Shown here one piece after another: positions 1 to 62,233 of a stretch of DNA of 64,000 bases. Origin of the DNA: a virus; IMG/VR virus record IMGVR_UViG_3300031722_000008, positions 1 through 64,000 of that record, one strand, 5' to 3'. A program made the position numbers and the translations under genes. The notes beneath the pieces were generated by a model, which saw nothing but the letters and a program-made list of their open reading frames with translations, was not told the DNA's origin and did not search any database. Numbering within the stretch: position 1 is the first letter of the stretch; each line of letters opens with the position of its first letter.

Positions 1-108
1 AGCAGATTCTTTCTCTTCTTTATCTTTCTCTTCTTTGTCCTTTTCAGAATCATCAGCAGATTCTTTCTCTTCTTTATCTTTCTCTTCTTTGTCCTTTTCT
101 TTGTCCTT
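1..108. repeat. tandem repeat, about 54-bp unit
   Basis: Two copies of a 54-base unit starting agcagattctttctc lie at 1-54 and from 55 onward. The second copy is followed by a shorter internal duplication of ttctttgtcctt. The repeat encodes the acidic/basic Glu-Lys run of the scaffold-like protein and may continue beyond the window. Confidence 0.8.
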
Positions 109-309
109 TTCAGAATCTTCTTCTGCTGCTAATTTTTGCTCTAATGTTAAATCACTTTCATTATCAGCATAACCTTCTATTTCTTGCGCTAATTTTTCAA
201 GAACCGCAGGATCTAAATTGCTTAATGTACTTTTAATGTTAGCATTTTCTGAGGCTTTCTTTTCAAAAAAACCACCCTCTATAAATTCACTATAAAAATT
301 ATTTGACAT
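1..309 (-). CDS. scaffold-like charged virion protein, N-terminal part
   Basis: An open frame starts at ATG 309 and runs off the window edge, so only 103 residues are visible. It begins with FYSEFIEGGFFEKKAS, which resembles the T4 capsid-targeting peptide (YxEFIxEA). VLEKLA and EQKLA follow, and then a highly charged Glu/Lys/Asp run made of repeated SEKDKEEKDKEEKES units. It overlaps the end of the protease gene by 11 bases. In T4-like phages the gene after the prohead protease is the core scaffold followed by the capsid protein, so position and charge suggest a scaffold. That role is inferred; the C-terminal part is not visible. Confidence 0.6.
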   Translation of the reverse strand, partial: MSNNFYSEFIEGGFFEKKASENANIKSTLSNLDPAVLEKLAQEIEGYADNESDLTLEQKLAAEEDSEKDKEKDKEEKDKEEKESADDSEKDKEEKDKEEKESA

Positions 310-2656
310 TTAACATTTCTCCCTTCTTTGTCTTGTTTATTTTATTTGTAGCTTTTTCGATACCTTTTCCTATACCTGCAAATATTAATCCATCAGCTAG
401 AAATCCTGGGATTGATCCTGCAAGTTGACCTTTTTTCGAATTGTTAAAAATAACATCACCTAGCATTGAATCTCCAATATCTCTAATGAAATTGCTTGCT
501 TGCTTTTCAATTTCTATTTTAAAGCAAGAACTTGCAGTTTTCAAGTACTCGTCCATATCTTGATATTTTAAATTTCCCTCAAGAAGTATATTCTCAGCAG
601 TATCTTCATTTCCGACACCAATTAGTACAGAGGCATATTTTATAATCGATATGTCTTTTTTTGAATAACCATTATCTTCCATAGCGCTATCGATGCTAGC
701 ATTTTTAAAAATATTATCATCGAAATCATCAGCTTGTTTTGGAATTTTTTTAGAAATATCTTTAATTAACTTTCCTGCTCCTTTCGAACCTTTATTTATT
801 GCTTTTATTCCTGCAGGTGTAACCATAGAATACAGGAATGCTGCATTTGTAGGGTTTTCAGCTATATACCTATTAAATGATGATGTCTGGTCTCCATTGT
901 TTATTCTGCTTCTTTGGAGTGCTGAATAAGAAAGTGTTAGTGGTATTCCAGCCATCAATGCTTTCATTGTACTTAACTTTGCAGTTTTTTCAAATCCAAA
1001 AGTATTATCATCTAAATAGTTTGCTATTTTCATTATACCATCATTTAACTCTCCGTTATTAGCTCTTTTAATTCTATCGTTTTGATATGCAGAATTAATC
1101 ATTGCTGACATAATAGCTGGAACAGTAAGGTCAGAGGCTTCTTCACTTGCTGCTTTAGTTAATATATTTGGTAGGAAATGATTTCTATTATTTTTTGGCT
1201 CTATTTCTCCTCTTGAAATCTTATCTAATCTAGGATATGCAAACTTTCTATGATTACTTCTAGATTCTAATAAGTGAGATACTATGCCATCCATGATGTC
1301 GTGGTTAAGGAAGTCACCATTGAAGCTTGTCTCTTGAGGTCTTGTTTTCATAATTACAAGTTTTATTTTAGCTGCTGGATGATTATTAAACATTCCATAT
1401 CCACTAGAATCACATTCACTTTTAATAGCATTTATCACATTCATAACATGACCTATTCCCATGTCCATGCCTAAATTTTCAGTTATAGAATTATTATTAC
1501 TAATAATAGATTTATCACCCAAACTACATGGAATCTGTCTTAAATCGTGACAATCCATATTCATGACTTCGAAAAAGATATCATGAATTTCGAGTGGAGA
1601 TAATTCTATAGCTGCAAAATCTAAAACTTTTAAAAATTGACTGAATACTTTTTCTGGAGGAACTTTATTCATCTGAGACAATTCTCTCAATTTCATTCCA
1701 ATATCTTGGCATTTAGCTTTATCCCAATATTCCGAGTAATTTAACTTCAATACATCGACTATATTTTCTAACATATTTAATCCATCTCTCGAAACTTCAT
1801 CACAAGCATTAGCTAATGCCTTATCTCTTATTTTGGTTTTTACTTTATCAACATCTTTAGGTGTTGATTTTTTATCCTCTTTAAAAGAAGAAGCTATCAC
1901 TTCCATATTTAATTCTTCATAAGGTTTTTCTGTTGCAACTTTAAATATATCCTCAATCTCAAGACTATCAATCATACTTGCTGTTTTCTCTAAACCTTTT
2001 CCTGATACAAATGCAACTTTACTTCCCTCGATAATTAGACCTTCAACTTTTGCAGTTCTTTCTGCTCCATTTAATACTGCAGATATATCGTGGAATTTAG
2101 GTCCTATATTGATTTCATAAACTTTCTTTCCATTGTCCATGACTTTACCTTTCATGGTCTTTAAATGCTCACAGTAATCAAATCTAGTTTTTGCAGCTTT
2201 ACCACAATAAGAACATACTACATGGTCTACTCTGCACCCCATAGATACATCGGTCATAAATCCTTTTTCGAAACCTCTAACTATTGATGGCGCTATTCTT
2301 CTATCTATCCTTATTAATAAATAGACAGACTTCATTTTATCTGACCAATCCGCCGTTAGTACATCACCTATGGCTTTTTCTATTAATTTATTTTCGTGAT
2401 TTTTAAATGTGTGAGCAGATAAGAATGTTTTATATCCTTTTAATAATTCTGTTTCAGGAAAATAATCATCATTCTTGTTACTGCCCCAATACTCTCCAGC
2501 ACTAACTGCTTTAACCTTAAGATATAAGTAATCAGGATCATAGGTAAAACCATCTGGTAATTTTACTGAGGCTGTTTTAATTAAGTCATTATCAATGACT
2601 TCAAAATCATTATTTTTAAAATCAATTAAAAATGTTGTGTGTTTGTTAAAAGACAT
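299..2656 (-). CDS. prohead protease with long C-terminal extension
   Basis: This 785-residue protein has an N-terminal domain of the kind found in prohead proteases of large myoviruses. The motif KNHENK (His near residue 87) is followed by AIGDVLTADW, and DVSMGC supplies the likely nucleophile Ser138. Immediately after is a zinc-finger-like insert (C148, C151, C162, H164) typical of this subfamily. The remaining ~550 residues are not recognised but carry many K-x-A-S peptides (IKTAS at 26-30, EKTAS, LKTAS, IEKQAS), which may be self-cleavage sites. The start follows a GGAG site. It should mature the head and trim proteins carrying similar peptides. The family call is good; the active-site residues are inferred from motif spacing. 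Confidence 0.75.
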   Translation of the reverse strand: MSFNKHTTFLIDFKNNDFEVIDNDLIKTASVKLPDGFTYDPDYLYLKVKAVSAGEYWGSNKNDDYFPETELLKGYKTFLSAHTFKNHENKLIEKAIGDVLTADWSDKMKSVYLLIRIDRRIAPSIVRGFEKGFMTDVSMGCRVDHVVCSYCGKAAKTRFDYCEHLKTMKGKVMDNGKKVYEINIGPKFHDISAVLNGAERTAKVEGLIIEGSKVAFVSGKGLEKTASMIDSLEIEDIFKVATEKPYEELNMEVIASSFKEDKKSTPKDVDKVKTKIRDKALANACDEVSRDGLNMLENIVDVLKLNYSEYWDKAKCQDIGMKLRELSQMNKVPPEKVFSQFLKVLDFAAIELSPLEIHDIFFEVMNMDCHDLRQIPCSLGDKSIISNNNSITENLGMDMGIGHVMNVINAIKSECDSSGYGMFNNHPAAKIKLVIMKTRPQETSFNGDFLNHDIMDGIVSHLLESRSNHRKFAYPRLDKISRGEIEPKNNRNHFLPNILTKAASEEASDLTVPAIMSAMINSAYQNDRIKRANNGELNDGIMKIANYLDDNTFGFEKTAKLSTMKALMAGIPLTLSYSALQRSRINNGDQTSSFNRYIAENPTNAAFLYSMVTPAGIKAINKGSKGAGKLIKDISKKIPKQADDFDDNIFKNASIDSAMEDNGYSKKDISIIKYASVLIGVGNEDTAENILLEGNLKYQDMDEYLKTASSCFKIEIEKQASNFIRDIGDSMLGDVIFNNSKKGQLAGSIPGFLADGLIFAGIGKGIEKATNKINKTKKGEMLNVK

Positions 2657-25629: not shown

Positions 25630-27501
25630 TTAGCTTTCTCTTCTTGGTGGTTTTTGATTAGGTAATGGTCTCATGTCAATTTTATCTTTAGATTGTTTAG
25701 TTTGTTTAGTTTGCTCTAATTCAGCTAATCTCTTTTCTACCATGCCTTTAGCTTCCATTGGTATCTTGGATAAATATTGGGTTTGTTGTTCTTTAGGCAT
25801 TTTAATTAAGCTAAGAGCTATCCTGTTTACTTCTTTCTCAACATCACCATTGTTTTGTTGTCCCTCTTGAGGTTGTTGAGACTGCTTACTTTCCCCTGCT
25901 TGTTGATTAGTGGCTTGTTGTTCACCAGTTCCTCCAGATTGAGGAGCTTGTTGTTCTTCAGGATTAATATTAACTCCGTATTGCTGTGCAAGTTTTTGTT
26001 GCATTGCTTGTAATTTAAACTGCATTTCCATTTGTTTTATTTGGAGTTGTTCCTGTAGCTCCATAGATTCTATTTGCATTTTAATCTTCTCATTTTCGGC
26101 TTTCGTTTGAAGAAGTAGAGCATCCATAGTTTCCTTTTCGATGGCTTCTTTCATCTTATCAGAATCCATACCCATTGCTTTCCACATATAATCATTAGAA
26201 CATTTATTTGCACTATTCAACTGAATAATTAATTGTTTTTGTTGAACATCATCTTGCATTTTTAGGTCAGACATTTTTACTGAAAGTAATGCATCATCAT
26301 CTTCTTCTGATAACCATTCACCCCTGGCTTTTGCCATACCCCTAATTATAAAGTTTTGCATAAAATCTTCTAAAAGAAGTCTATATGTTATAAATTGATT
26401 TTCTAATATTCTAAGAGATATTGAACTTCCTGAATAACTTACTCCACCGAAAATAAATTCTTTAGGCATATTCATACCAGCTAAGATTTCAGATTGAACT
26501 TGGTCTATTTCAGGAGCAAGTAATAAACTTCTTCCTTCTCCACCAACATTTATAACATTAACTGGTACTGGAGATACAACTTTATAGTTAGGATCCCTAA
26601 CAGATTTTTTTATTTGGTCAGCTAAGTCCTGTGCTGTTTTATTCCAATCAGCTTGAATGTTAACAGTATTTGTTCTATCAAGATAATATATTCTCATTGG
26701 CACTATATGCTCTCTAGCGATAGCCTCTTGTGCTTGCCTAAGAACATTTCTGTACATCAATAGTTTTAGTACGTTTGCTACTACAGGAACTCCCCAGACG
26801 CTATTATCACCCATAGAATCGGTCGCTCTACTGAAATGATAAACATTATCAGGGTTTAGTATGATACTTTTATTTTTTCTAACAGCTTGTTTCATAAGTT
26901 CTGGTATTTTTTCATATTCAGCTTTCGGTTGTTTCTTTGTTACTATATCTCTTATTTTTTGAGGAATAGTCCATCGAAATGTCTTACTTCCTGTAGCTGG
27001 ATTATAATCTATAATCATTTTCGAAGGATCTAATCTAATCATATTAGTCCATTCTTTTTCACCCTTAGAGTTTCCTCCAAGCTCACCCATAACAAAGCAA
27101 TTTCCATATAAAAAGTAATCTATCCCTATCTCTATAAGTAATTTATGAAGATTAAGATTTTTAAATAAAACCTTCTCATAGAGTTTAACTGAATCTGATT
27201 TTTCTTTACTTTTATTTTCATCATCTTCTAGTGTAACTTCGGATACAGGGAATGTAGCTAACGCATTGATAGCTCCACTTATTAATGGATCAAATGTATA
27301 GTAATATTTACACCATTTAAATACATCTATAGTTGATTCAGGTAATTGCATATCAGAAAGATTTAAAAAAGGTGATGGATATGGATTTTGCATATTACCT
27401 CTGAATGAGGCTACCTTTTCTTGCGAACCTTCAATGGCTGCATTAAGTTCTTTCTCTAACATGGCTTTTTTATCTTTCTCATCTAAAAACCCTTTACTCA
27501 T
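25630..27501 (-). CDS. portal protein
   Basis: A 623-residue protein with portal features of large tailed phages. STIDVFKWCKYYYTFDPLISGAINALATFPVSEV opens the body, and a conserved GVSYSGSSISLRILENQF segment near residue 350 is followed by a long helical stretch. The C-terminal ~170 residues are Gln-rich and low complexity. The portal dodecamer is the DNA channel of the head. EGSQEKVASF near residue 30 carries the EKxA peptide found in many virion proteins here and may be an N-terminal processing site. The start follows GAGGGGGA. Confidence 0.8.
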   Translation of the reverse strand: MSKGFLDEKDKKAMLEKELNAAIEGSQEKVASFRGNMQNPYPSPFLNLSDMQLPESTIDVFKWCKYYYTFDPLISGAINALATFPVSEVTLEDDENKSKEKSDSVKLYEKVLFKNLNLHKLLIEIGIDYFLYGNCFVMGELGGNSKGEKEWTNMIRLDPSKMIIDYNPATGSKTFRWTIPQKIRDIVTKKQPKAEYEKIPELMKQAVRKNKSIILNPDNVYHFSRATDSMGDNSVWGVPVVANVLKLLMYRNVLRQAQEAIAREHIVPMRIYYLDRTNTVNIQADWNKTAQDLADQIKKSVRDPNYKVVSPVPVNVINVGGEGRSLLLAPEIDQVQSEILAGMNMPKEFIFGGVSYSGSSISLRILENQFITYRLLLEDFMQNFIIRGMAKARGEWLSEEDDDALLSVKMSDLKMQDDVQQKQLIIQLNSANKCSNDYMWKAMGMDSDKMKEAIEKETMDALLLQTKAENEKIKMQIESMELQEQLQIKQMEMQFKLQAMQQKLAQQYGVNINPEEQQAPQSGGTGEQQATNQQAGESKQSQQPQEGQQNNGDVEKEVNRIALSLIKMPKEQQTQYLSKIPMEAKGMVEKRLAELEQTKQTKQSKDKIDMRPLPNQKPPRRES

Positions 27502-31071: not shown

Positions 31072-31102
31072 ATTTATCCTCCTATTCTCTTCGTTATAAT
31101 AC

Positions 31103-31701: not shown

Positions 31702-32424
31702 TTAAAAATTATTATTCAAGTCAGGGAAGTAATTCTGTTGATCTATTGGGTTACTTCTATCTCTGACCTTTTTTATTCCAAAGCCAGCAGCACCTAATCC
31801 CGCAACTGTTCCGAGCCTTGCATTAGTAGTACTTCTAGTAGCTTTGTCAAAAACTTTTTGTTGATCGCCAATTTTACTATTTAAATCAGTAATGCCAATT
31901 TTATCTTCCCAATTTTTCATATTAGCTTTGTTTTTATCAAGCTTAGAATTTAAGTCTGATGTTATATTTTGTTTAGCTTGATTCTTTCTCATATTTAATG
32001 AGTCGAGTTGCTTTTGAGCAGAAGAGACTTCTTTAGTTGCCGCCCTACCTTCGCTATCAAATAAATTTTTTACAAAGCCTTGTTTTTGAGTTCTATCTAA
32101 AATAGTTTTGTTTTTGATTTTTAAGCCATCAACATTCTTCTCTGCATCACCTATTTTTTTATTCAAATTAGGCAAATATTTATCTGTATCATTCAACTTG
32201 CTATTAATCTTATCCATGTTATTTTTTATTGAATTGTATTCTGGACTACTATTCTTAAAATTATTGCCAAGAGATACCATATCATCTAATTTATTTTTGG
32301 ATTCTTTCTTAGCTATTCCAGTAACATTAGATAGATACTTATTTTTCTTAACTAGCTTTGTTAGATTCTCAATAGAGTCATCTAATATTCCAGCAGTTTT
32401 TTCAGGTTCACTTGGCTTTATTGA
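31702..32424 (-). CDS. -1 frame extension of the upstream virion gene
   Basis: The frame is open from 32448 down to 31702. It has no ATG, GTG or TTG before ATG 32280, which itself lacks a ribosome binding site. The 48 codons between 32424 and 32281 read as sensible protein (SIKPSEPEKTAGILDD...), including an EKTA peptide. They join the preceding gene in the -1 frame at a run of seven T. The whole gives a 598-residue product with a coiled-coil tail. A sequencing error in the homopolymer would give the same picture. Confidence 0.6.
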   Translation of the reverse strand, partial: SIKPSEPEKTAGILDDSIENLTKLVKKNKYLSNVTGIAKKESKNKLDDMVSLGNNFKNSSPEYNSIKNNMDKINSKLNDTDKYLPNLNKKIGDAEKNVDGLKIKNKTILDRTQKQGFVKNLFDSEGRAATKEVSSAQKQLDSLNMRKNQAKQNITSDLNSKLDKNKANMKNWEDKIGITDLNSKIGDQQKVFDKATRSTTNARLGTVAGLGAAGFGIKKVRDRSNPIDQQNYFPDLNNNF

Positions 32425-33497: not shown

Positions 33498-33521
33498 TTT
33501 TATCACTTCTTTCTTATTTAT

Positions 33522-35162: not shown

Positions 35163-36017
35163 CTACTCTTGCTGTTCTTGTTGTTTTTTTAATCTATGCT
35201 TCTTGAAATTTACTATATTTTCAGGAGTGGCAAAATAAGTAGGTAATGCTGCAACTTCTTGTGCGGCTGCCATAGGAGCTAATGCTGCTCCAACTTTAAG
35301 TGCGCGCTTTGCAACTCTAACTGAATTATCTCCCATTTTTTTACTTACCATTTTTTGGAATTCAGGATTACTTGCCGCATCTACTGTAGTTGCTTTATTT
35401 GATAGGTCTTTAAAATCTCTAGCAAATATCTTTCCACTGGCACCAACTCTTCCCAATGATTGTTCTAGGTTTTTACCTATTTCACCACGAATAGCCTTAC
35501 CTTTCTTTAATCCGTATAAACCTCCCCATAATGCTGCAACTGGTGCTGTGCTTGCGCCTATAGTTGCGGCGATACTTTTAGCATCAGGAGCTGTTCCAAA
35601 TTCTTCTTTGTGTTTTTTATATAATTGATAAGTAGGAATTGTTGCTCCTCCTGCGATATCACCAATTGCCATGCCTGCCATGCCACCATGAACCAAAGCT
35701 TTATTGAATGGCATCTTGCCTTTTTTCATAGCGAGAGCAGTACCAGCTATACCTCCAATTTTCATTGCAGTATCTTGTGCTTCGCCATTAACCATCCCTG
35801 TTGCAATACTCTTGCCTACTGTCTTTACACCACTTTTTATCTTAGCTTTACCTTCATCATTACTTAAAGCGTATGCGCTACCTAATGCTCCTGCACCTAC
35901 ACCTGTTCCTATTCCAACTTTTTTAATTAAACCTTTATTTTTGTTGAACATTTTAATTGCTTTTTCTTTTATGCTTGCAGTCTTTTCTATAGATTCAATA
36001 TAATATTCCTTATTCAT
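35163..36017 (-). CDS. internal virion protein with capsid-targeting-like N-terminus
   Basis: A 284-residue protein starting MNKEYYIESIEKTAS, a clear member of the YxxxIEKxA group. ATG 36017 lies 7 bases after GGAGGTGAT. The rest alternates Gly/Ala-rich hydrophobic segments (VGIGTGVGAGALGSAYAL, IGGIAGTALAM) with Lys-rich stretches, suggesting membrane insertion or packing inside the capsid. It ends in QQEQQE. Role beyond packaging unknown. Confidence 0.65.
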   Translation of the reverse strand: MNKEYYIESIEKTASIKEKAIKMFNKNKGLIKKVGIGTGVGAGALGSAYALSNDEGKAKIKSGVKTVGKSIATGMVNGEAQDTAMKIGGIAGTALAMKKGKMPFNKALVHGGMAGMAIGDIAGGATIPTYQLYKKHKEEFGTAPDAKSIAATIGASTAPVAALWGGLYGLKKGKAIRGEIGKNLEQSLGRVGASGKIFARDFKDLSNKATTVDAASNPEFQKMVSKKMGDNSVRVAKRALKVGAALAPMAAAQEVAALPTYFATPENIVNFKKHRLKKQQEQQE

Positions 36018-38104: not shown

Positions 38105-39718
38105 CTAACTACTAAACTTATTTTTTATCTTTTGAATTAAACTTTCTTTTGGTCTCATTTTACGGTTATTTTCATCAAGTAAATTATATAGTAGTTGATT
38201 TTGTTTAGCCTTATTATCAGCTATTTCATAAATAACTTCATCAGGAGTCCTATATGGAGATTTAAATAAACCTAACGTTTTTGGCATAGTAGATAGATAC
38301 CTATTTACTTCGACCTTTCGTTCGCCCTCCGCCCGTTTCGATTGACCGAACGCTCTTATTCCTCTGGCTTCCATTTGCTTCATTCTTTCTGGATTATAGT
38401 GACCATCTAAGGCACCTTCCCATGTAGTATCTCCAAGAGATAATCCTTCTGCTCCTGCCCCACTTATAAGCATTACTCTTTTCTTTCTAGCATTATAATC
38501 ATTAACATCATTCTGTCTAGTTTCTTCTGTAACTCCTTTATTACCCTTACCTATAAACTTTCCATAACTTATTCCTCTATCCTTAAGTCCTGCTTCTAAT
38601 ACATCAGCTCCACCATTAATCATATTAGTTAGTAGTATTGCTTGACCATCAGGAGTTGTCTTTAAATGTTCTTGCATATCACTAAGCATCTTATCTGTTT
38701 TTGGTGATAGCCTTGAACTTTCTTTTAGTGATATTCCAGGAACTACTGAACCAACACTATTAACTAATTTTCTTGCTTCTATCATACGATTAAATGCTTT
38801 TGATATTTCATCATCTTTTAGGGTTTCTAATCTTTTTTGTTTTATTATTTCTCTTAGTTTAGGGTCATTCTTAATTAATTGCTTATAATATTTAGCTTGC
38901 TCTTTAGATAATGGAACTTTTTCGGTATGAGTTTCTTTAAGTGGAATCTTGGCCATAGGTCTAACATCATCAACGCTAGCATAGTCAACATATTTAGCTA
39001 AGTCACCTTGCAATCTTTTCTTATTGTTAAAACCAGTAACAGGAACTCTATTCTCCTTAAGTCCTTTATATTTAGGTGAAGTACTTCTCTTTAGATAATT
39101 CTTATCAAAATCTTTCGAAGTAGCACCTAGATGATGTTCGCCTTGTGAAGCTAAATCAACTAAATTGTACATATCAGGAATATGATTATTTACTATAGAG
39201 CCTGTTAATCCTATAAAATTCTTGTATTTATCTCTAGTGCTTTTGAAACTATCTAATGTCGCAGTATCATTATTTCTAAGCTTATGCATTTCATCAGCTA
39301 TGACTGTGTCAGCACCAGTATCCCTTAAGATAGCTTCAGGATTTTTCCTGAACATTTCATATGAAATTATATTATAGTCAGAATCTTTATTGGGTGCATG
39401 ACCTGTTCCTTTTGATATCTCACCCATATTACCCACAATATTATATTTACTGTCCGTAAATTTTTTTACACCATCATTTCCAAAATTATGTCTTAAACTT
39501 GCTGGAGTAACTACGAGTGCTTTGTTCGCTAAGCCTTTTTCTTTCATCTTTTCGAACTTAGCTATCGATGATAATGTTTTACCACTTCCAACATCGTGCG
39601 CAACAATCATACTGTTTGATGGATTATCAACTACACGTTTTTGAAACGGATTAAATTCTATATCATCATGAAGTTTTGCTTGTTTCTCTATTTGCTCTTT
39701 ATATTTATCTCTTTTCAT
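38105..39718 (-). CDS. SNF2-type helicase/ATPase with capsid-targeting-like N-terminus
   Basis: A 537-residue superfamily 2 ATPase. It begins MKRDKYKEQIEKQAK, the shared capsid-targeting-like peptide, then FNPFQKRVV (Q motif-like), Walker A HDVGSGKTLS near 42-50, IADEMHKLRN (motif II), GLTGSIVNN (motif III), GAGAEGLSL (motif V) and MEARGIRAFGQS (motif VI). ATG 39718 follows GGAGG by 7 bases. It overlaps the previous gene by 14 bases. If packaged like T4 internal proteins it would enter the host with the DNA and could act on incoming DNA or on host factors; delivery is inferred. Confidence 0.8.
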   Translation of the reverse strand: MKRDKYKEQIEKQAKLHDDIEFNPFQKRVVDNPSNSMIVAHDVGSGKTLSSIAKFEKMKEKGLANKALVVTPASLRHNFGNDGVKKFTDSKYNIVGNMGEISKGTGHAPNKDSDYNIISYEMFRKNPEAILRDTGADTVIADEMHKLRNNDTATLDSFKSTRDKYKNFIGLTGSIVNNHIPDMYNLVDLASQGEHHLGATSKDFDKNYLKRSTSPKYKGLKENRVPVTGFNNKKRLQGDLAKYVDYASVDDVRPMAKIPLKETHTEKVPLSKEQAKYYKQLIKNDPKLREIIKQKRLETLKDDEISKAFNRMIEARKLVNSVGSVVPGISLKESSRLSPKTDKMLSDMQEHLKTTPDGQAILLTNMINGGADVLEAGLKDRGISYGKFIGKGNKGVTEETRQNDVNDYNARKKRVMLISGAGAEGLSLGDTTWEGALDGHYNPERMKQMEARGIRAFGQSKRAEGERKVEVNRYLSTMPKTLGLFKSPYRTPDEVIYEIADNKAKQNQLLYNLLDENNRKMRPKESLIQKIKNKFSS

Positions 39719-40544
39719 CACTATGCCTCCTAAACTTACTTAATCCATAAGCTCCAAGTCCAATACCAGCTGTCCCGATTCCAATTCCAAGTGCAAGCTT
39801 TTTATTTATTCTTGATTTAGGTATATTTCTTATTTTATCTTTATATTTCTCTTTGTTTTTATAGCAATGATCAATTATTATTTTGTCATTATCTCTAGCT
39901 AGATAAGCTTGAAACGGTTTTTTCTGAACATAATCCATTCTTGATATTTCTAAGTCCTTTTTAAATTGATTACTCATATCCTTATTGACAGATATTTTTT
40001 TGCCATAATTTTTCAAACCATCATTTTTAGGATCTAATAGGCTTCTTGATAATTTCAATTTTTTAGGGAAAGATTTATTCTCGTAATATGGAGAGAATGC
40101 TCCCTCATTCATCATTTGAGCATCAAAACCATGAGTTCCCTTTACTATAGCATTTCTCTTCGAAACAGCATTATAGAGTTCTTTATCTCCCTTGCTTAAT
40201 TTTTTTACTCCTGAAAACTTATCAAATACATTTAACATTGCTTTCTCGGATTTACTCATGTTTGAGTTCTTGATATCAAAATCAGCAAGTGATTTTGGTG
40301 ATACTATATTTGTCTTACCACCCTTAGAATTTATTTGCTGAAATTCTTTATCATCCACAATATCATTCATATCCCATTTTTCTATTAAATTTTTATTCCC
40401 TAGTTCCACACCCTTTGCAATTTCGGAATTACTCTTTCCTACAGTTTTAATTAATTTATTTCGATTTTTATTTGATAACTCATGATATTTCTCTTTCCAT
40501 TTTGTTGCAGCTTGCTTTTCTATTTGCTCTTTATATCGATTCAA
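39705..40544 (-). CDS. internal virion protein with capsid-targeting-like N-terminus
   Basis: A 279-residue basic protein starting at TTG 40544, 9 bases after GAGGAG. It begins MNRYKEQIEKQAA. The middle (residues ~125-215) is soluble and includes KGTHGFDAQMMNEGAF; a Gly-rich hydrophobic segment lies near the C-terminus (LGIGIGTAGIGLGAYGL). It precedes the helicase and is probably co-translated with it. The middle domain is not recognised. Confidence 0.65.
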   Translation of the reverse strand: MNRYKEQIEKQAATKWKEKYHELSNKNRNKLIKTVGKSNSEIAKGVELGNKNLIEKWDMNDIVDDKEFQQINSKGGKTNIVSPKSLADFDIKNSNMSKSEKAMLNVFDKFSGVKKLSKGDKELYNAVSKRNAIVKGTHGFDAQMMNEGAFSPYYENKSFPKKLKLSRSLLDPKNDGLKNYGKKISVNKDMSNQFKKDLEISRMDYVQKKPFQAYLARDNDKIIIDHCYKNKEKYKDKIRNIPKSRINKKLALGIGIGTAGIGLGAYGLSKFRRHSDEKR

Positions 40545-41224: not shown

Positions 41225-42006
41225 TAATAGTTTAATGAATATCTTGCCTCATTTCTTATTCTATCTAAGTTTGGAGATACCTTATTTTGTGCGTGATTAA
41301 AGGCACCATTTTGATCCATCGCTACTCCAGTTAATCTTCCGAAACCTGCTCCAAGTCCTGCACCTAATCCTCCAGAAAGAACAACTTTCCCTAGTCTATT
41401 AGTTGTTCCTCCTGCCAATCCTAATCCTAATCCTGCTAATGCTCCAACTCCAGTTCCAATCTTAAGACCTGTCTTTTTTGCAGTTAAACTATCATATTTA
41501 TTTTGATATTCTTTAGAGCTGTAGACATTACTTATTGATGAATCTAACTCTTTATATTTATTTAAAGTATCTTCACTAACCCTTTTATTAGTCTTATGAG
41601 CAACTAATACTTTCATAATATCTTCATTCATACCATTAACTAAAGCTGATTGTATATCATTTCTGATATGAGGTTTCAGATCATCTTGAAGAGAATTTGG
41701 TAGTCTCCTATACCAAATAGAATTAGTTACATCACTCAAATGTTTATCGGTCTTTTCGCGTATAGATAAGGCTTCATTATTAGTCTTTTGGTGTTTTGCT
41801 TCGTTGCTTCTCGTCGGAGTGCTCGTCGCATATCTCGTCGCACTCCTTGTATGTTGATTAATATCGTTCTTATATTGTTCTTTAGTCTTTTTGAACTGAC
41901 CACTTCTAAATCCACTATCTGCTGATTGATTGGAATTACCTCCAAAATCTCCGCTTCTGTATTCGCCAGTTACTGCCTCTTTTTCAATTTGTTCTTTGTA
42001 ATTCAT
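41224..42006 (-). CDS. internal virion protein with capsid-targeting-like N-terminus
   Basis: A 260-residue protein starting MNYKEQIEKEAV at ATG 42006, 9 bases after AAGGTG. Residues 15-75 are Ser/Thr/Gln/Arg-rich and probably disordered, including a Thr/Arg repeat (RSATRYATSTPTR). A helical domain follows. The C-terminal Gly-rich hydrophobic segments (GVGALAGLGLGLAGG, GGLGAGLGAGFG) resemble membrane-inserting stretches. Likely packaged; function unknown. Confidence 0.65.
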   Translation of the reverse strand: MNYKEQIEKEAVTGEYRSGDFGGNSNQSADSGFRSGQFKKTKEQYKNDINQHTRSATRYATSTPTRSNEAKHQKTNNEALSIREKTDKHLSDVTNSIWYRRLPNSLQDDLKPHIRNDIQSALVNGMNEDIMKVLVAHKTNKRVSEDTLNKYKELDSSISNVYSSKEYQNKYDSLTAKKTGLKIGTGVGALAGLGLGLAGGTTNRLGKVVLSGGLGAGLGAGFGRLTGVAMDQNGAFNHAQNKVSPNLDRIRNEARYSLNY

Positions 42007-42007
42007 A

Positions 42008-43591
42008 TTACAATACACCTTCCTCTTCGCCCATATTCGTTTTAAAAATTTTTGAACTTAAGTCATTAAACTTATCTCTTGCAGGCTGTAACTTATTTGA
42101 AATTGCCCTAATCTTATTCTTGGTATCACTTGCTATCATTGATGCCCTTGGCTTTGCAACCTGTAGTCCGTTTCTTATTCCTTCTTTAGCAATATCCAAA
42201 TCTCTTTGTGACATCGCTAAAAGTGGAAAGGGTGCATCAAAAAGAGTATCGAAAGCATTGTCCTTAACTATTTTAGTTACTTTTTGAACAACTGGAGATT
42301 CTCTTAATTTTTTTCCATACATTTTTCCTCCAGCAAATATTGCTTGTTTTTCTATTTCCTCTATATAGTATTCCTTAGATTTCTTCTCAAAGTTAGAAGA
42401 TTTTTTTCCTTTAAGCTGATTCATAATATGGCTTTCTGATACTTTAAATAGTTTTAATCCATATTCCTTTGCCATATCCTTAAAACTATTAAATTGTTCT
42501 TCAAAGACTATGTGTATATCTTTATTTGTAGTTATGCTCTCAATATCATTCTTATATCTTAGAGGCTTAAAATCACCTTTTATTTTGTACATCGAACAAG
42601 GTTTGTTTATATCTACATCACTAGTATATTTTAATACTGTGCCTGTGTAGTTGCTTTCCGTAGGAACTTTACTATCCTTAGTCAGTACATTGAATCTAGC
42701 AGTACCATCATTCCACTTTAATCCAAAAGCAGCAGAGAAAGAAGGATATTTAGACGCGAATAAAACATCTCCTTTGTTGTTTCCTGATGTATCTTCTGAT
42801 AATCTAAATTTCTTTATTCCTTGAACTGGTGAAGCATGATAATAAACATTTTCTCCAGCTTCTTTTTCAATACTATTATCATTATCCTCGCTAGCTGTGC
42901 TTTTGATGAAAGAAAACTTTCCTATAGCACCTTTTAATGTTGGTGCAGTAGCACATGCTCTATGAGTGTAGCAGAAGTATATAGTTTCTCCACTAGGCAT
43001 AAATGCTTTCGATATACCTAATTCTCCATTATTATACCAAACCGCCTTACCCTCTCTTACTATTTTCTTTTCATCAGAAGTTAAAGGTATTTGATATTTT
43101 TTAAGATCTTTCATTTTGTATCTTTTCTCGGCTACTTTATCAAATCCACTAAGTATCTCATTTGCTTTTTGTTCAATAAGTTCTTCTATGCTTTTTTCTG
43201 CTCCACCTGTGTATTTACCATAATATACAGGAACTTCTTTGATTCCTTTAAATTCGCAAGCTTCCTTTCTATGATGTCCATCAAGCAAAATAGAATGACC
43301 TTTTGTTTGAGGGGTAATTCCTTGGAATTTATCTACCACCATGAAAGGATTAATATTTCCAGGCTTTATAGTTTCTGCAATATTAAACACCTTTTCTTTA
43401 TTTACAGGTTTATCGATACCTTGTAGTTTATCTATCTTCATCATTTTCTTTTGCCATTTATAATTCTTTACAAGTTTTATTGCACCATCTTCATTAGGTG
43501 TCTTGTATTCATGGGAAGTAGCAATCATATAAGCTACTTCTCTATCAATGGAACCTTTCAGAAATGCCCTATCTATCTTCTCTAATTTCAT
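42008..43591 (-). CDS. multidomain virion polyprotein: ParB-like and ART-like modules
   Basis: A 527-residue protein built of modules separated by EKxA-type peptides. Residues ~70-135 form a ParB/sulfiredoxin-like domain (ILLDGHHRKEACEFKGIKEVPVYY). After FDKVAEKRY comes an unassigned module. After SIEKEAGE comes an ADP-ribosyltransferase-like start (NVYYHASPVQGIKKFRL, then DVLFASKYPSFSAAF). After YYIEEIEKQAI comes a basic helical tail. The peptides match the capsid-targeting/processing signal of neighbours, so the prohead protease may release the modules. The ART assignment rests on the YYHAS and FASKYPSFSAAF pattern and needs a fold check. Confidence 0.6.
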   Translation of the reverse strand: MKLEKIDRAFLKGSIDREVAYMIATSHEYKTPNEDGAIKLVKNYKWQKKMMKIDKLQGIDKPVNKEKVFNIAETIKPGNINPFMVVDKFQGITPQTKGHSILLDGHHRKEACEFKGIKEVPVYYGKYTGGAEKSIEELIEQKANEILSGFDKVAEKRYKMKDLKKYQIPLTSDEKKIVREGKAVWYNNGELGISKAFMPSGETIYFCYTHRACATAPTLKGAIGKFSFIKSTASEDNDNSIEKEAGENVYYHASPVQGIKKFRLSEDTSGNNKGDVLFASKYPSFSAAFGLKWNDGTARFNVLTKDSKVPTESNYTGTVLKYTSDVDINKPCSMYKIKGDFKPLRYKNDIESITTNKDIHIVFEEQFNSFKDMAKEYGLKLFKVSESHIMNQLKGKKSSNFEKKSKEYYIEEIEKQAIFAGGKMYGKKLRESPVVQKVTKIVKDNAFDTLFDAPFPLLAMSQRDLDIAKEGIRNGLQVAKPRASMIASDTKNKIRAISNKLQPARDKFNDLSSKIFKTNMGEEEGVL

Positions 43592-43611: not shown

Positions 43612-44082
<471 letters not shown>

Positions 44083-44975: not shown

Positions 44976-45654
44976 AATAGAAACTATTTATTTCATTTTT
45001 TCCTCTTTCAATATCATCATATAATCTACTTCTGTCATGATCAACATCATGAAGATCATCTCTTCTCTCTTGTGGCGCTTCTTTAGGCATTACACCACAC
45101 ATTGCTCCACATTGAGGGCATCTACCATCCTCACTATCAGGCTTTCCTGCATAGCCACATTGTTCACAATTAATATCACCCATATACCCCGAAAGCTTTA
45201 GTAGTGCTTGTTTCTCTATTTTATTTTTATAGTATTCTTTTTTTTCATCTTCTTCTGTTACGGAATTTACCATTCTTCTTTTCTCATCTTCATTTGGACT
45301 TTCTTGAACTTCCTTTTCCTCATCAGTCATCTTATTATCTTCGTCATGAGGAATTTCCATATCTGCTTTTTTGAATACCCCAAGAGCAGCAGAACCTAAT
45401 TTCTTAGCGGCACTAACACCTGGACCTGCTGCTAATCCACCAAGAGCTAATCCACCCATAACTCCACCAGCTATATTTCCAGCCTTTTCATCCGGAGAAG
45501 CACCAGGATTAGCTTCATTAGCTGATACACCCTTCATTGAGCCGATTCCAGCCCCAAGCAATGCTCCGCCAGTTGTTCTACCTAGAAATTTACCTACTTG
45601 AGCAAATCCAGCAGTTTTAAGTATTTCTTCACTTAAATTATTTATTTCATTCAT
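44974..45654 (-). CDS. virion protein with zinc ribbon and internal targeting-like peptide
   Basis: A 226-residue protein. The N-terminus LSEEILKTAGF and the internal EYYKNKIEKQALLK (near residue 145) both resemble the processing/targeting peptides. Between them lie a Gly-rich hydrophobic segment and an acidic stretch; after the second comes a zinc ribbon (CEQCG, CPQCGAMCG) and a charged tail. The start follows AAAGGAGG. It looks like two joined virion modules. Confidence 0.65.
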   Translation of the reverse strand: MNEINNLSEEILKTAGFAQVGKFLGRTTGGALLGAGIGSMKGVSANEANPGASPDEKAGNIAGGVMGGLALGGLAAGPGVSAAKKLGSAALGVFKKADMEIPHDEDNKMTDEEKEVQESPNEDEKRRMVNSVTEEDEKKEYYKNKIEKQALLKLSGYMGDINCEQCGYAGKPDSEDGRCPQCGAMCGVMPKEAPQERRDDLHDVDHDRSRLYDDIERGKNEINSFY

Positions 45655-47721: not shown

Positions 47722-48029
47722 TTAATTTCAATGTTCCATCTAGCCTCAAAAGGCTTCTTTGTTTCTTTGATACCTTTTATATTTTTTGTTTTGAATCTCC
47801 TAATTTCATTTTTTGTAGTATCGAACCCCCAAAAATCATCACCTGAAAGTTTGTAGGGTTCAACCAATCTTTTTGTTTTAGTACCTTTTTTGTCTTTGTA
47901 AGATATCTCTAAGAGATTTTTATTGAGACCACAATTTTTAATTTTGTTGATTCTTTTATCATTCATAGTTAATTCTTGTGCCTGTTTTTCAATATAATCC
48001 TTATATTTATTTCTAAGATGAATATTCAT
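47718..48029 (-). CDS. WYL-like domain protein with capsid-targeting-like N-terminus
   Basis: A 103-residue protein. Residues 6-16 (NKYKDYIEKQA) match the shared targeting-like peptide. The rest resembles a WYL domain: LLEISYKDKKGTKTKRLVEPY, a WGFD strand and RRFKTKNIKGI. WYL domains bind ligands or nucleic acids and are frequent in phage-defence and regulatory proteins. ATG 48029 lies 5 bases from an AAGGAGTTGAT site buried in a perfect hairpin. Packaging and delivery to the host are inferred. Confidence 0.65.
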   Translation of the reverse strand: MNIHLRNKYKDYIEKQAQELTMNDKRINKIKNCGLNKNLLEISYKDKKGTKTKRLVEPYKLSGDDFWGFDTTKNEIRRFKTKNIKGIKETKKPFEARWNIEIN

Positions 48030-53334: not shown

Positions 53335-54263
53335 CCTGCAATTTTTTCAAAACATTCTTCGATGATTTCATTTGCTTCTTTGTGATGAGGATTTTTTGTC
53401 TTTTTGAAAGAATCAGCTAACAGTTTTCCCCCTATAGCTATTGGGATTGCTCCTAATCCTACATGTCCAAGACCTTTAGCAAAATGTTTAGGGTTTTCCT
53501 TTATGAACCGACCAATACCTTTTAATGTTTGTTTCTCATAACCCTTTCCACCCTTTACATATTTTGATGCTATATCTCCTTGAATAACATCTGTTTGTGG
53601 ACCTAACTGATTAAATCCACTTCTAGCTACATTCATAGGAATTTTTTGACCCATATACATGATATTGCCATCCACTTTCTTTTGAAGAATTTTTTGAAAT
53701 TCTTTAGCATTCTTAGCTCCCATTAATTCTGGATTGTCTACTTTATGCATACCCTTATAATCCTTAACAGGAATATTAACTTTTAGTGTTTCTTGAGTTT
53801 TCTTTGCACCAAAAAGATCTGGCATAAGTCTTCCGTTATCAATTTGATCTCTTCTCATTCCTATTCCATCAGCTACACCTTTCTTTTTCGCCATATAAGT
53901 TTTACCTGCTTGTTCTTCTTTTCCTATACCTGCTGCCATAGAAGTTAGGTTATCAGGGTCCATAGCTTTATTTGATAATATTCCATGTTCTTTGATTCCA
54001 CTAACATTATCTTTCTTCGTATTGTGATATCTTCTAACTACACCATCTAGCATTCCTTCTTGCCTTGCCTTATTTATAACGTTTGCTCCGACTGCTCCAC
54101 CAACAATTCCTGCTCCACCCTTAGCAACTTTTTTATTATGTTCTTTTTCAGCATAGTCGAGATCTTTATTTGAAATTTCATCTACAGAAACTCCCCACTT
54201 TTTCGCAAGTTGTTTTTTTGTATATTCTACTGCTGTTTTTTCTATTTGATTTCTATAATTCAT
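53328..54263 (-). CDS. virion protein with targeting-like N-terminus and possible ART-like domain
   Basis: A 311-residue protein starting MNYRNQIEKTAVEY at ATG 54263 after AGGAGGAGAATAT. After a short hydrophobic segment, RRYHNTKKDNVSGIKEHGIL resembles the opening of ADP-ribosyltransferase-like folds (YHGT-x-KEN-x-xxI-x-xxGL). The C-terminus ends in another processing-like peptide, IEECFEKIAGK. T4 packages an ADP-ribosyltransferase (Alt) using a similar N-terminal signal, which makes the idea attractive. The catalytic Glu is not evident. Confidence 0.5.
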   Translation of the reverse strand: MNYRNQIEKTAVEYTKKQLAKKWGVSVDEISNKDLDYAEKEHNKKVAKGGAGIVGGAVGANVINKARQEGMLDGVVRRYHNTKKDNVSGIKEHGILSNKAMDPDNLTSMAAGIGKEEQAGKTYMAKKKGVADGIGMRRDQIDNGRLMPDLFGAKKTQETLKVNIPVKDYKGMHKVDNPELMGAKNAKEFQKILQKKVDGNIMYMGQKIPMNVARSGFNQLGPQTDVIQGDIASKYVKGGKGYEKQTLKGIGRFIKENPKHFAKGLGHVGLGAIPIAIGGKLLADSFKKTKNPHHKEANEIIEECFEKIAGK

Positions 54264-54483: not shown

Positions 54484-54508
54484 AGAGTTGGGCAATGCCC
54501 AACTCTTT
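54482..54508. terminator. bidirectional intrinsic terminator
   Basis: AAAGAGTTGGGC and GCCCAACTCTTT form a 12-bp stem between convergent genes. Confidence 0.8.
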
Positions 54509-55697
54509 ATTTCTTTTCAATTATGTCATTAACTATATCCATAGCTGTTTTTGCTAAAGCTTTTTTTGTAGATATAACACCTGCTCCATGAGTTAAGTTA
54601 TTTTTCTTACCTCTTTCAGCTTCTTCATTTTTTACAATTGTAGCTTTAGAAAGTTTATGATCTAATCCTTTTTCAGCTTCTTCTTTTCTTACACTTTCAG
54701 CTTTGCCAAGCTTATGATTTAATCCATGATGTTCTTCTTCCTTTTTCGTGATAGTAGCTTTCGCAATTGGAGAAGTTACACTTCTTGCAGCTTCTTCTTT
54801 TTTTGTGATTTCAGCTTTAGGTACTGGCGATTTCAAGCCTCTTTCTCTTTCTTCATTTAGTGTAATTGTAGCTTGAGCGATTTTTTCAAAAGTATCACTA
54901 ACTACAGTGCTTGCTTCTTTTTCAGCTAATGCTCTTCTTCTTTTCTTTTGAATTACAGCTTCTGGTGTTGTTCCAAGACTTGCTGCTAATCCTACTAATC
55001 CCATACCAGGAGCATGTTGACTTAATCCACTAGCAGCATAATTAGCAGCACCACCTAATTGTGTTTTTAAGTGCTCTTCCTTGCCTGCTTTTCCTCCGAT
55101 ATATTTTTCATGCAACTTATTAGTATCGTGAGCCCTAAATGCTGCATTTGCTCCAGCACTACCTATCCCCAATACTCCTAATTGCTTTGCACTTAACTGA
55201 CCCATATTTCCTTTACTATGAGAATGCGCCATCATTGCTATTCCAACAGGTAACATTGCTCCGAAAGTTTTAAAGCCTCTTCCGAATTCTGGAGCAATTC
55301 TATCTCTCCACATTCTAGTTTCAGTATCATCATCTCTATCTCTTGCAATTTTTTCGAATTGATCTTCGATTATATCGCTAGCCGTTTTTTGTTTTTTACT
55401 TCCAGCAGCATATCCTGCTCCAGTTGCACCTGCAAGACTTGCTGCACCTACTCCAGTAGCCACCCTTGCGTTCTTTGTCGCAGAACTTGTACTGTCAGCT
55501 TTAGCTTTAGCTTTATCAGCTATATCGCTTATTCTTTGCATGTGAGCTCCTTGATTAGATAAATTTTTGCTTCCATTTGCTGGATCAGTAAGTCTTGTTG
55601 ATGCTTTATCTAATGCTCCCTCTGCTTTATTGAGCGCTCCTTTTGCCTTTTTCAATGTCTTTCCTGTGATTAAATTTTTGTATTCGTTGAAACCCAT
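54507..55697 (-). CDS. repeat-containing virion protein
   Basis: A 396-residue protein starting MGFNEYKNLITG after AAAGGAGGATCATATT, distantly like the targeting peptides. A disordered Ala/Lys-rich start and a Gly/Ala hydrophobic segment are followed by IIEDQFEKIARD and SDTFEKIAQA, both with the EKxA signal. Residues ~280-375 are five imperfect repeats of about 20 residues with the core KAxITKKEEAERGL. It ends MDIVNDIIEKK. Likely a processed internal head protein. Confidence 0.6.
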   Translation of the reverse strand: MGFNEYKNLITGKTLKKAKGALNKAEGALDKASTRLTDPANGSKNLSNQGAHMQRISDIADKAKAKADSTSSATKNARVATGVGAASLAGATGAGYAAGSKKQKTASDIIEDQFEKIARDRDDDTETRMWRDRIAPEFGRGFKTFGAMLPVGIAMMAHSHSKGNMGQLSAKQLGVLGIGSAGANAAFRAHDTNKLHEKYIGGKAGKEEHLKTQLGGAANYAASGLSQHAPGMGLVGLAASLGTTPEAVIQKKRRRALAEKEASTVVSDTFEKIAQATITLNEERERGLKSPVPKAEITKKEEAARSVTSPIAKATITKKEEEHHGLNHKLGKAESVRKEEAEKGLDHKLSKATIVKNEEAERGKKNNLTHGAGVISTKKALAKTAMDIVNDIIEKK

Positions 55698-61092: not shown

Positions 61093-61840
61093 ACCTTTTC
61101 TTTTTTTGTTCATCAAGCATTGATTTTGTTTTCATTCCTGTATTATATTGCATATGAGAAGATGATGCATTCAATGCTCCCCCAGCTACTCCTGTTCCTA
61201 GAGTAGTTAATGCGGTAAGCGCTCTTTCTCCACCTTCTGATACTTTCTTTCCACCGTAATAGTTTTTAGAAAGGTCCTCACCTACATCTTGCAATTTAGA
61301 ATTTATATCTCTAACTCTTTTACCTGAATCAGCCATACCTTTCATGTGATTTAATGCTTCTTCCTGTTCTTTCTTTGATAACCTCTTGCCCTTTTTAGCT
61401 GCATTAAATAGTTGTTCGGCTTTATCTACGCCACCCATTGTTTTATTAGATTCCCTCATTAAATCGCCACCAAGTCCTTGGAATTCGGATAGCTTACCTA
61501 GTGATTTAGTGTATTTCATTACTCTTTTTGGATTAAAGGAATCCATACTTCCTTTTGCCATATTCATAAGATTATGTGATAACCCTGGCATTTTCTTTCT
61601 TACTGCAAGTGCTGCTGCCCCTGTCATTGCTGCTGGCATTAATGCGCCTGTTGCTGCTCCACTAATAAATCCACTGGCGTCTCCTACAGCTTTATGAATC
61701 TTATGATGCTTTTCATTTTGCAGAGAGTTTCTAAATGTACTAACTCCTGTTGGGTCAAACCCCGATACAAAATCTTTCATATATGATGATTCTGCTAATT
61801 TTTCACAAGCTATCTTTTCTATTTGTTCTTTATAATTCAT
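61091..61840 (-). CDS. internal in-frame start giving the second virion module alone
   Basis: AAGGAGG followed by CAAAT and ATG 61840 lies in frame within the HAD-virion fusion gene. It would yield a 249-residue protein starting MNYKEQIEKIAC. This suggests two once-separate genes joined in frame with the old start retained. Confidence 0.5.
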   Translation of the reverse strand: MNYKEQIEKIACEKLAESSYMKDFVSGFDPTGVSTFRNSLQNEKHHKIHKAVGDASGFISGAATGALMPAAMTGAAALAVRKKMPGLSHNLMNMAKGSMDSFNPKRVMKYTKSLGKLSEFQGLGGDLMRESNKTMGGVDKAEQLFNAAKKGKRLSKKEQEEALNHMKGMADSGKRVRDINSKLQDVGEDLSKNYYGGKKVSEGGERALTALTTLGTGVAGGALNASSSHMQYNTGMKTKSMLDEQKKKR

Positions 61841-62233
61841 ATTTGCCTCCTTATTCATCCAATTATTAAATTTACCTATTTGCTCAATCAAGTGTTTCGG
61901 ATTACCATCAAAGCATACTGCATTATCATCGACATACATTATTGCTGGTGGTTTTTCTTTTGCCACCCCATCTACTTTAATATCATATTTTTCTAGCCAT
62001 TTTTTAATAGCATCTATCCCACCTTTTTGGAAACATCTGGTAGATACAACAACGATTTTATAATCTTGCCTTAATTTATCTATAGCTTCTTTTATTCCCT
62101 CTACTGGTTTATCAGGTATATTGGTTGTTCCTTTCCAACCACTAATATAGGAGTGAATCACTCCGTCAAAATCAAACACTATGGTTTTTTTAGCGCTTGC
62201 TATTTTTTCTATTAATTTCTTATAATTCAACAT
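61091..62233 (-). CDS. HAD-like domain fused to an internal virion protein
   Basis: A 380-residue protein with two modules. The first starts MLNYKKLIEKIAS (targeting-like peptide) and continues with a HAD-type phosphatase domain: FDFDGVIHS (motif I Asp pair), VVSTR, KPPAIMYVDDNAV. The second begins at residue ~132 with MNYKEQIEKIAC and is a helical Gly/Ala-rich internal-protein module. ATG 62233 lies 6 bases after GGGAG. Inside the frame an AAGGAGG site precedes ATG 61840, so the second module can also be made alone. Likely a packaged nucleotide or polynucleotide phosphatase; substrate unknown. Confidence 0.7.
   Translation of the reverse strand: MLNYKKLIEKIASAKKTIVFDFDGVIHSYISGWKGTTNIPDKPVEGIKEAIDKLRQDYKIVVVSTRCFQKGGIDAIKKWLEKYDIKVDGVAKEKPPAIMYVDDNAVCFDGNPKHLIEQIGKFNNWMNKEANMNYKEQIEKIACEKLAESSYMKDFVSGFDPTGVSTFRNSLQNEKHHKIHKAVGDASGFISGAATGALMPAAMTGAAALAVRKKMPGLSHNLMNMAKGSMDSFNPKRVMKYTKSLGKLSEFQGLGGDLMRESNKTMGGVDKAEQLFNAAKKGKRLSKKEQEEALNHMKGMADSGKRVRDINSKLQDVGEDLSKNYYGGKKVSEGGERALTALTTLGTGVAGGALNASSSHMQYNTGMKTKSMLDEQKKKR

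What the first reader, a model, noticed from the sequence alone, without database searches (positions are those of the whole stretch)
1..62233. A family of capsid-targeting-like N-terminal peptides (YKxxIEKxA) marks a packaged protein arsenal
Seen at or near the N-terminus of minus-strand proteins starting at 309 (FYSEFIEGG), 31656 (YSEMVEKLA), 36017, 39718, 40544, 42006, 44082, 48029, 54263 and 62233, and internally in those at 43591, 45654 and 62233. Most read YKEQIEKQA or close. Known: T4 internal proteins and Alt carry an N-terminal signal MKTYQEFIAEA that targets them into the prohead and is removed by the gp21 protease. Length, Tyr and Ile spacing and position agree. The bodies differ (helicase, HAD, WYL-like, ART-like, Gly-rich membrane segments), as expected for cargo. 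Inferred: these proteins are loaded into the head and injected.
Basis: partly seen in the sequence, partly recalled or inferred. Interest (0 to 1): 0.9.

Follow-up and report, generated by a model that had tools for sequence, protein, structure and literature searches.

The report
Phage tag marking proteins for packaging
A large uncultured phage carries a short peptide at the front of about nine unrelated proteins, and comparison with relatives suggests it is an address label, cut off by the phage's own protease, that loads these proteins into the virus head.

Summary
In detail: YxxxIEKxA occurs 11 times in the 160.5-kb record, always on the late (minus) strand; reversed control 0. Its core, h-E-K-x-A (h = hydrophobic), is not only N-terminal: it runs through the head proteins (minus strand 40 vs 3.0 expected, plus strand 2 vs 2.9).

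Over 55 distinct loci carrying a relative of this phage's head-maturation protease, hxKxA occurs 1183 times vs 420 expected; controls hxKxG, hxKxS, hxExA give 0.8-1.1. The same count recovers T4's L/I-x-E site in T4. In published virion mass spectrometry of the relative Arash, 11 of 12 hEKxA proteins have at least 5 unique peptides, against 56 of 184 others.

Best reading: hxKxA is the prohead-protease site of a large phage family, unlike the Glu-ending sites of T4 and SPN3US. Here a cargo-specific YK-x-x extension (11 of 15 cargo sites, 1 of 25 others) makes it a capsid-targeting propeptide on a SNF2 helicase, HAD-like and WYL proteins and others. Packaging is supported indirectly; cleavage after Ala is inferred; injection is untested.

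The parts
35976..36002 (-). N-terminal tag YIESIEKTA of ORF 35163-36038 (Gly-rich hydrophobic body)
39677..39703 (-). N-terminal tag YKEQIEKQA of SNF2-type helicase ORF 38105-39721
   Evidence: SNF2 domain PF00176 E 2.4e-22; Arash gp217 homolog E 2e-36 lacks hxKxA
40509..40535 (-). N-terminal tag YKEQIEKQA of ORF 39705-40544
41974..42000 (-). N-terminal tag YKEQIEKEA of ORF 41224-42018 (Gly-rich C-terminus)
   Evidence: weak homolog in G002 (phmmer E 2.4e-4)
42341..42367 (-). internal copy YIEEIEKQA in ORF 42008-43591; further sites FDKVA (res 150) and IEKEA (res 241) in the same ORF
44041..44067 (-). N-terminal tag YKQEIEKQA of ORF 43612-44100
45205..45231 (-). internal copy YKNKIEKQA in ORF 44974-45654 (CxxC pairs; N-terminal ILKTA as well)
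   Evidence: weak match to Arash gp213, phmmer E 1e-4, which is a virion protein there
47979..48005 (-). N-terminal tag YKDYIEKQA of WYL-domain ORF 47718-48080
   Evidence: PF13280 E 4.3e-5, 23.9 bits vs cut-off 21.8; homolog in G002 E 6e-12
54231..54257 (-). N-terminal tag YRNQIEKTA of ORF 53328-54344; a C-terminal FEKIA near residue 332
61808..61834 (-). internal copy YKEQIEKIA in ORF 61091-62239, preceded by its own ATG (61840) and AAGGAGG five bases upstream of it
62198..62224 (-). N-terminal tag YKKLIEKIA of HAD-like ORF 61091-62239
   Evidence: HAD-like: phrog_1238 E 7.4e-15, TIGR01662 E 5e-4 but below its cut-off
31609..31635 (-). YSEMVEKLA near the N-terminus of ORF 31150-31656, a small protein with five hxKxA sites in the head gene run (probably core)
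54507..55697 (-). ORF with hEKxA at residues 114 and 270 and further KxA sites; no N-terminal Y tag
299..2656 (-). head-maturation (prohead) protease with long C-terminal extension; 11 hxKxA sites, 3 of them hEKxA
   Evidence: phrog_2774 E 6.1e-22; phrog_18299 head maturation protease E 9.8e-10; His87 and Ser138 invariant in 9 relatives
1..309 (-). start of a Glu/Lys-rich core or scaffold-like ORF (FYSEFIEGGFFEKKA, LEKLA) that runs off the record start
25630..27501 (-). portal protein, one hxKxA site (LMKQA)
   Evidence: phrog_16240 E 1.6e-21
27505..29424 (-). head-region protein with three hxKxA sites
   Evidence: homolog in G002
29689..31143 (-). head-region protein with five hxKxA sites
32418..33506 (-). 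core-type protein with eight hxKxA sites; relatives in D69 and Arash are likewise rich in the motif
33522..35153 (-). terminase large subunit (marks the head/packaging gene run)
   Evidence: phrog_675 E 3.3e-70

Best explanation
The phage belongs to a large, mostly uncultured group whose prohead protease cuts at h-x-K-x-A, probably just after the Ala (h = hydrophobic, often preceded by or followed in the pattern h-E-K-x-A; Ser, Gly or Ala often next). The site recurs in the core, protease, portal-side and, in many relatives, major capsid proteins. Separate late-strand genes, scattered among early genes, carry the same site at their N-terminus within a 9-residue peptide, Y-K-x-x-I-E-K-x-A. During prohead assembly the peptide docks the protein to the inner core (the Tyr and Ile lie four residues apart, on one face if helical); on maturation the protease removes it and the freed protein stays in the head with the DNA. 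Internal copies would split multi-domain cargo. Delivery into the host with the DNA then follows as for T4 internal proteins. Shown by sequence and by reanalysis of a relative's virion proteome: the motif, its late-strand and head-protein bias, its link to this protease family, and its association with virion proteins. Inferred: docking, the exact bond cut, trimming of the cargo. Not tested: injection and host effect.
For: (1) Late-strand hEKxA 40 vs 3.0 expected, early strand 2 vs 2.9; hxRxA, hxKxG, hxKxS flat. (2) Y tag 11 vs 0 and 0; N-terminal hEKxA 9 of 25 minus vs 0 of 104 plus ORFs. (3) Protease in the same record with invariant His and Ser across 9 relatives. (4) 74 further loci with a relative of the protease; in 55 distinct ones hxKxA 1183 vs 420, KxAS 431 vs 104, controls 0.8-1.1, T4-type [LI]xE[AGS] 1.11. 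(5) Two closer relatives repeat the strand split: hEKxA 30 vs 4.4 and 14 vs 1.8 on the late strand, 2 vs 2.6 and 0 vs 1.0 on the other. (6) MCP: 16 of 38 have hxKxA in the first 70 residues, 4.4 expected, shuffle maximum 12; two more have the same place with Arg (GFERYA). (7) Arash virion proteome: hEKxA proteins 11 of 12 detected with at least 5 unique peptides vs 56 of 184 without; control hEKx-not-A p 0.33. With length and composition held by shuffling, 11 detected proteins vs 2.25 expected, maximum 8 in 1000. (8) The Arash homolog of the tagged helicase has 38 unique peptides and 1148 spectra in the virion. (9) T4 as positive control: [LI]xE 55 vs 29.2, hxKxA 7 vs 4.8.
Against: No proteomics of this phage. 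The Arash helicase gp217 lacks hxKxA yet is in the virion, so a tag is not needed for packaging there. The extended Y tag was not found as a repeated N-terminal set elsewhere: exact-pattern scans gave only near-identical contigs of this phage plus three unrelated matches, and a looser pattern in 16 relatives gave 9 matches in 7 records against 3 for the control. Phage G-type MCPs mostly lack the site, and in four actinobacterial relatives hxKxA itself is not enriched (z -0.4 to 1.2), only R/K-T-A or KxAS variants in some. In Arash, N-terminal hxKxA alone within gp18-gp184 gives no signal (1 detected, 1 not; p 0.33) and the control hxKxS over all proteins gives p 0.013 before length control; one of the 11 detected carriers is a long tail protein (gp191), probably by chance. 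At cargo tags the residue after Ala is not Ser-biased. The Arash proteome lists 116 proteins, some of which the authors allow may be carry-over.
Confidence: 0.74

Rival explanations
1. hxKxA is only the protease site; packaging depends on other contacts, and the N-terminal peptide is simply a removable propeptide (for example keeping enzymes inactive until they are inside the head).
For: The same site occurs throughout head proteins without Y(-8) (1 of 25 non-cargo hEKxA sites). Arash packages gp217 and gp216 with no hxKxA.
Against: Y(-8) is strongly cargo-linked (11 of 15), so the peptide carries information beyond the cut site. The bodies have no common domain that could dock them otherwise.
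Confidence: 0.14
2. The peptide is an uncleaved docking helix that binds a core or portal protein, like an encapsulin cargo peptide; it is not a protease substrate.
For: The repeat is compatible with a short amphipathic helix (hydrophobics at -8, -4, -1/0), and core proteins carry many copies.
Against: The link to one protease family, the placement just before the conserved part of many MCPs, the KxAS bias, and the match to how T4 head proteins carry gp21 sites.
Confidence: 0.08
3. The repeats are paralogous relics or compositional bias (Glu/Lys/Ala-rich helices) with no shared function.
For: The proteins are Lys- and Glu-rich; homologous proteins share sites, so counts across loci are not independent.
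Against: Composition-preserving shuffles give 3.0 vs 40; controls with one residue changed are flat; bodies are unrelated; the plus strand shows nothing.
Confidence: 0.04

Closest known systems
T4 capsid-targeting sequence and gp21 prohead protease
   Same: A short N-terminal peptide shared by otherwise unrelated packaged proteins (PMC3012670, passages), with Tyr and Ile four residues apart as in the sequence quoted in the finding; many protease sites in the core proteins.
   Different: T4 sites end in Glu (L/I-x-E; PMC5694885, passages); here K-x-A. No sequence kinship between this peptide and the T4 peptide was tested. More and larger cargo.
SPN3US / phiKZ prohead proteases
   Same: Large myovirus heads with many internal proteins, several cut at a motif; RNA polymerase in the head (PMC5694885, PMC10052503, passages).
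   Different: SPN3US cuts after A-x-E and the phiKZ motif is given as S-x-E; propeptides there are mostly longer than 100 residues, with one of 20 (PMC5694885, passages).
P1 DarB capsid-targeting sequence
   Same: N-terminal signal that sends a reporter into the capsid (PMC9024508, passages).
   Different: The authors report no consensus among Dar proteins; no K-x-A motif named in the passages seen.
Salmonella phage Arash head module
   Same: Protease relative, core proteins full of hxKxA, RNA polymerase and SNF2 helicase in the virion (PMC10585845, section on genome and proteome read).
   Different: Few N-terminal tags; helicase untagged; paper does not mention a protease or a cleavage motif (the word protease is not found in its main text).
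Bacillus phage G gp19 protease
   Same: 37% identity over the protease domain; hxKxA sites in gp19 and some N-termini such as MKRLISKTA.
   Different: Its MCP lacks the site.

Membership tests
T4-type capsid-targeting sequence | short shared peptide at the N-terminus of several unrelated proteins | tested here: met
T4-type capsid-targeting sequence | cleavage site of the T4 type (L/I-x-E) at its end | tested here: not met
   tags end in E-K-x-A; [LI]xE[AGS] near expectation in the protease-family loci
T4-type capsid-targeting sequence | directs proteins into the prohead | not testable with these tools
   indirect support from the Arash proteome only
prohead (head-maturation) proteases | profile match and conserved catalytic His and Ser | tested here: met
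   phrog_18299 E 9.8e-10; His87 and Ser138 invariant in 9 sequences; that these are the catalytic pair is recalled from the family
prohead (head-maturation) proteases | cleaves head proteins at a recurring motif | tested here: inconclusive
   motif enrichment with this protease family and MCP placement fit; no cleavage data
ejected internal head proteins | enter the host with the DNA | not testable with these tools
   no experiment available
ADP-ribosyltransferase (claimed for 42008 and 53328 ORFs) | profile or sequence match to the family | tested here: not met
   no such match in Pfam, PHROGs, NCBIfam or PDB sequences; the one fold attempted was of no use, so a remote fold is not excluded

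The most novel reading that the evidence does not exclude
A widespread group of large phages uses a prohead protease with an h-x-K-x-A site instead of the Glu-ending sites known so far, and in this lineage that site has been joined to a portable nine-residue address (YK-x-x-I-E-K-x-A) that lets the phage add new packaged, self-trimming and in part polyprotein effectors, helicase, HAD-like, WYL and others, simply by acquiring the peptide. Reading K-x-A sites would then list the packaged cargo of a whole phage group from sequence alone.
Probability: 0.6. Interest if true: 0.82.

Novelty: new variant of a known kind. Interest (0 to 1): 0.68.

Why it matters
Which proteins large phages carry in their heads is mostly known only from proteomics of a few isolates. 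A sequence rule tied to one protease family would let cargo be listed from uncultured genomes, give candidates for proteins acting in the first minutes of infection, and offer a nine-residue packaging tag to test. It also extends prohead-protease site types from Glu-ending motifs to K-x-A. Searches that found no report of such a motif in the held library: (listings; subscription journals and preprints are largely outside that library).

Tried and rejected
Structure prediction of ORF 42008-43591 without an alignment gave mean pLDDT 33.9 and was not used; the second job was not spent. The idea that the sites of this ORF separate ParB-like and ART-like domains therefore stays a reading by eye without profile support. 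Close relatives by protein search were only near-identical contigs for protease, terminase and MCP. The 9-sequence protease alignment was too diverse to search with; a 2-sequence alignment worked. Looking for the exact Y tag elsewhere gave unrelated matches only, apart from this phage's own contigs. The triad scan, which assumes no motif, ranks K-x-A type triads at or near the top in this phage, Arash, D69, Tunturi_5 and phage G, but in T4 its top triads only partly show L/I-x-E (I-x-E with Q, A with I-x-E) and in Myrna and Phrappuccino it shows no such motif. Folding the RNA around the internal start at 61840 showed nothing (z 0.43). Fisher tests use classes set after seeing the motif.

Dropped before counts: one search used 73 of the 74 loci plus own (L067-L139) and kept 55 after removing near-duplicates; these still include the near-identical L067 and phage G itself (L076), without which hxKxA is 1141 vs about 405. 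One search used 196 Arash CDS of 80 aa or more; shorter CDS, the table rows xxxxx and Gp225.1, and rows of short CDS were left out; table and GenBank gene numbers were taken to agree.

Full report
Observation. Translation of the window confirms the peptide at the listed places. As a degenerate DNA pattern YxxxIEKxA has 11 hits in the 160,540-base record, all on the minus strand, with none on plus and none for the reversed pattern. Among ORFs of 70 aa or more between 35 and 124 kb, 9 of 25 on the minus strand and 0 of 104 on the plus strand have hEKxA in their first 45 residues. The window is the first 64 kb of a virus record; the rest was read as L002-L006.

The core hEKxA is not confined to N-termini: 40 vs 3.0 expected in 64 minus-strand ORFs, 2 vs 2.9 in 95 plus-strand ORFs, while hxRxA, hxKxG and hxKxS are at expectation. 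Carriers include the head-maturation protease (299-2656; 11 hxKxA), core-type proteins (31150, 32418, 159217, 69569-72817), portal-side proteins and, at residue 30, the major capsid protein (157747-158778). This is how T4 gp21 sites are spread through T4 head proteins, and the same count finds them there: [LI]xE 55 vs 29.2, z 5.6, whereas hxKxA is 7 vs 4.8.

Comparative test. The protease has relatives in Bacillus phage G, Salmonella phage Arash, Vibrio phage D69 and many actinobacterial phages; His87 and Ser138 are invariant in nine. A scan with the window and phage G sequences returned 74 loci. In 55 distinct ones hxKxA is 1183 vs 420 expected and above expectation in 53; hEKxA 202 vs 34; KxAS 431 vs 104; hxKxG 1.03, hxKxS 1.12, hxExA 0.81 and T4-type [LI]xE[AGS] 1.11 times expectation. 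Homologous proteins share sites, so these are not independent counts. In four actinobacterial relatives hxKxA is not enriched; Finch has K-T-A (17 vs 2.1) and Stormageddon R-T-A (14 vs 2.4) instead, Myrna and Phrappuccino neither in the triad scan. Two closer relatives, G002 (175 kb) and G003 (116 kb), repeat the strand split: hEKxA 30 vs 4.4 and 14 vs 1.8 on the late strand, 2 vs 2.6 and 0 vs 1.0 on the other.

Major capsid protein. Of 38 MCPs found in the 55 loci, 16 have hxKxA within 70 residues of the start (4.4 expected, at most 12 in 300 shuffles); two (L068, L070) have GFERYA where the window has AFEKFA. By eye about half of the 38 are of the phage G type, and most of those lack the site; this counts against a universal rule.

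Virion proteomics of a relative. The Arash paper (PMC10585845; I read its section on genome and proteome) lists 116 virion proteins. Joining its table to the deposited genes, 11 of 12 CDS with hEKxA have at least 5 unique peptides, against 56 of 184 without (p 3.6e-5); the twelfth, gp225, has 2. The control hEKx-not-A gives p 0.33; hxKxS gives p 0.013, a sign of length bias. With each protein shuffled, so that length and composition are held, 2.25 detected carriers are expected and at most 8 seen in 1000 runs, against 11. Two carriers, gp97 and gp100, lie among early minus-strand genes far from the head cluster and are well detected (24 and 9 unique peptides). Within that block hEKxA gives 2 of 2 (p 0.031), but N-terminal hxKxA gives 1 of 2 (p 0.33). 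One carrier, gp191, is a long tail protein and probably a chance match.

Cargo in this phage. At hEKxA sites, Y stands at -8 in 11 of 15 sites of minus-strand ORFs between 35 and 66 kb and in 1 of 25 others, so the cargo peptide is more than a cut site. Bodies: SNF2-type helicase, WYL, HAD-like, Gly-rich hydrophobic proteins and proteins without profile. The Arash helicase gp217, homologous at E 2e-36, lacks hxKxA but is among the most detected virion proteins (1148 spectra): the kind of protein is packaged in a relative, and the tag looks like an add-on here. The WYL homolog in G002 sits next to portal-side genes and has IRKAA near its N-terminus. G002 also has a TerF-type vWA protein on the late strand with LQKEA at residue 7.

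Internal copies. In the HAD-like ORF the second copy has its own ATG at 61840 with AAGGAGG five bases upstream: either an in-frame second gene or a fusion that a protease would separate. Copies in 42008-43591 and 44974-45654 have no such start and would act as internal cut sites.

Mechanism. Proposed: the N-terminal peptide docks to the core, the protease cuts after the Ala, the body stays in the head and leaves with the DNA. T4 internal proteins are the model: diverse proteins sharing only a targeting sequence (PMC3012670, passages). Docking, the bond cut and injection are inferences. The residue after Ala is Ser in 12 of 40 hEKxA sites overall, but not preferentially at cargo tags.

Novelty. 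SPN3US cuts after A-x-E and the phiKZ motif is S-x-E, with T4 also Glu-ending (PMC5694885, passages). Library searches listed no paper on a K-x-A prohead-protease site; these are listings in a partial library. The Y-extended tag appears confined to this lineage. I file it as a new variant of a known kind.

Noticed in passing
window 18354-25340 (-): A single 2328-aa ORF with RNA polymerase beta and beta-prime domains in one chain, in the head gene run; G002 has a 2244-aa homolog, while Arash has two separate genes whose products are among the most detected virion proteins.
   Followed up: partly
window 1-309 and L006 16370-16540 (record 160370-160540): The record breaks inside a 54-base tandem repeat of a Glu/Lys-rich core-type gene seen at both ends, which suggests a circular map or a break made at the repeat.
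   Followed up: partly
window 50934-52757 (-): Six tRNA genes on the minus strand, including two tRNA-Tyr with the same anticodon; small ORFs over them are probably spurious.
   Followed up: no
window 54507-55697 and 64458-64781 (-): Two related ORFs (starts MGFNEYKNLITGKTLKKA and MGKLNAYKNLINGKSLKEA) with repeated KTASDI(I/V)xxxFEK segments, one at the very C-terminus: a possible C-terminal form of the signal.
   Followed up: no
phage G 163172-163870 (-), locus L022: A minus-strand ORF beginning MTRLLKLKKLASGKIELFHTT, i.e. K-x-A at the N-terminus, among mostly plus-strand genes; no family search was made.
   Followed up: no
L002 5569-8817 (-) (record 69569-72817): A 1082-aa ORF with 11 EKxA sites, no Pfam or PHROG match; a homolog with nine or more hxKxA sites in G002.
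   Followed up: partly
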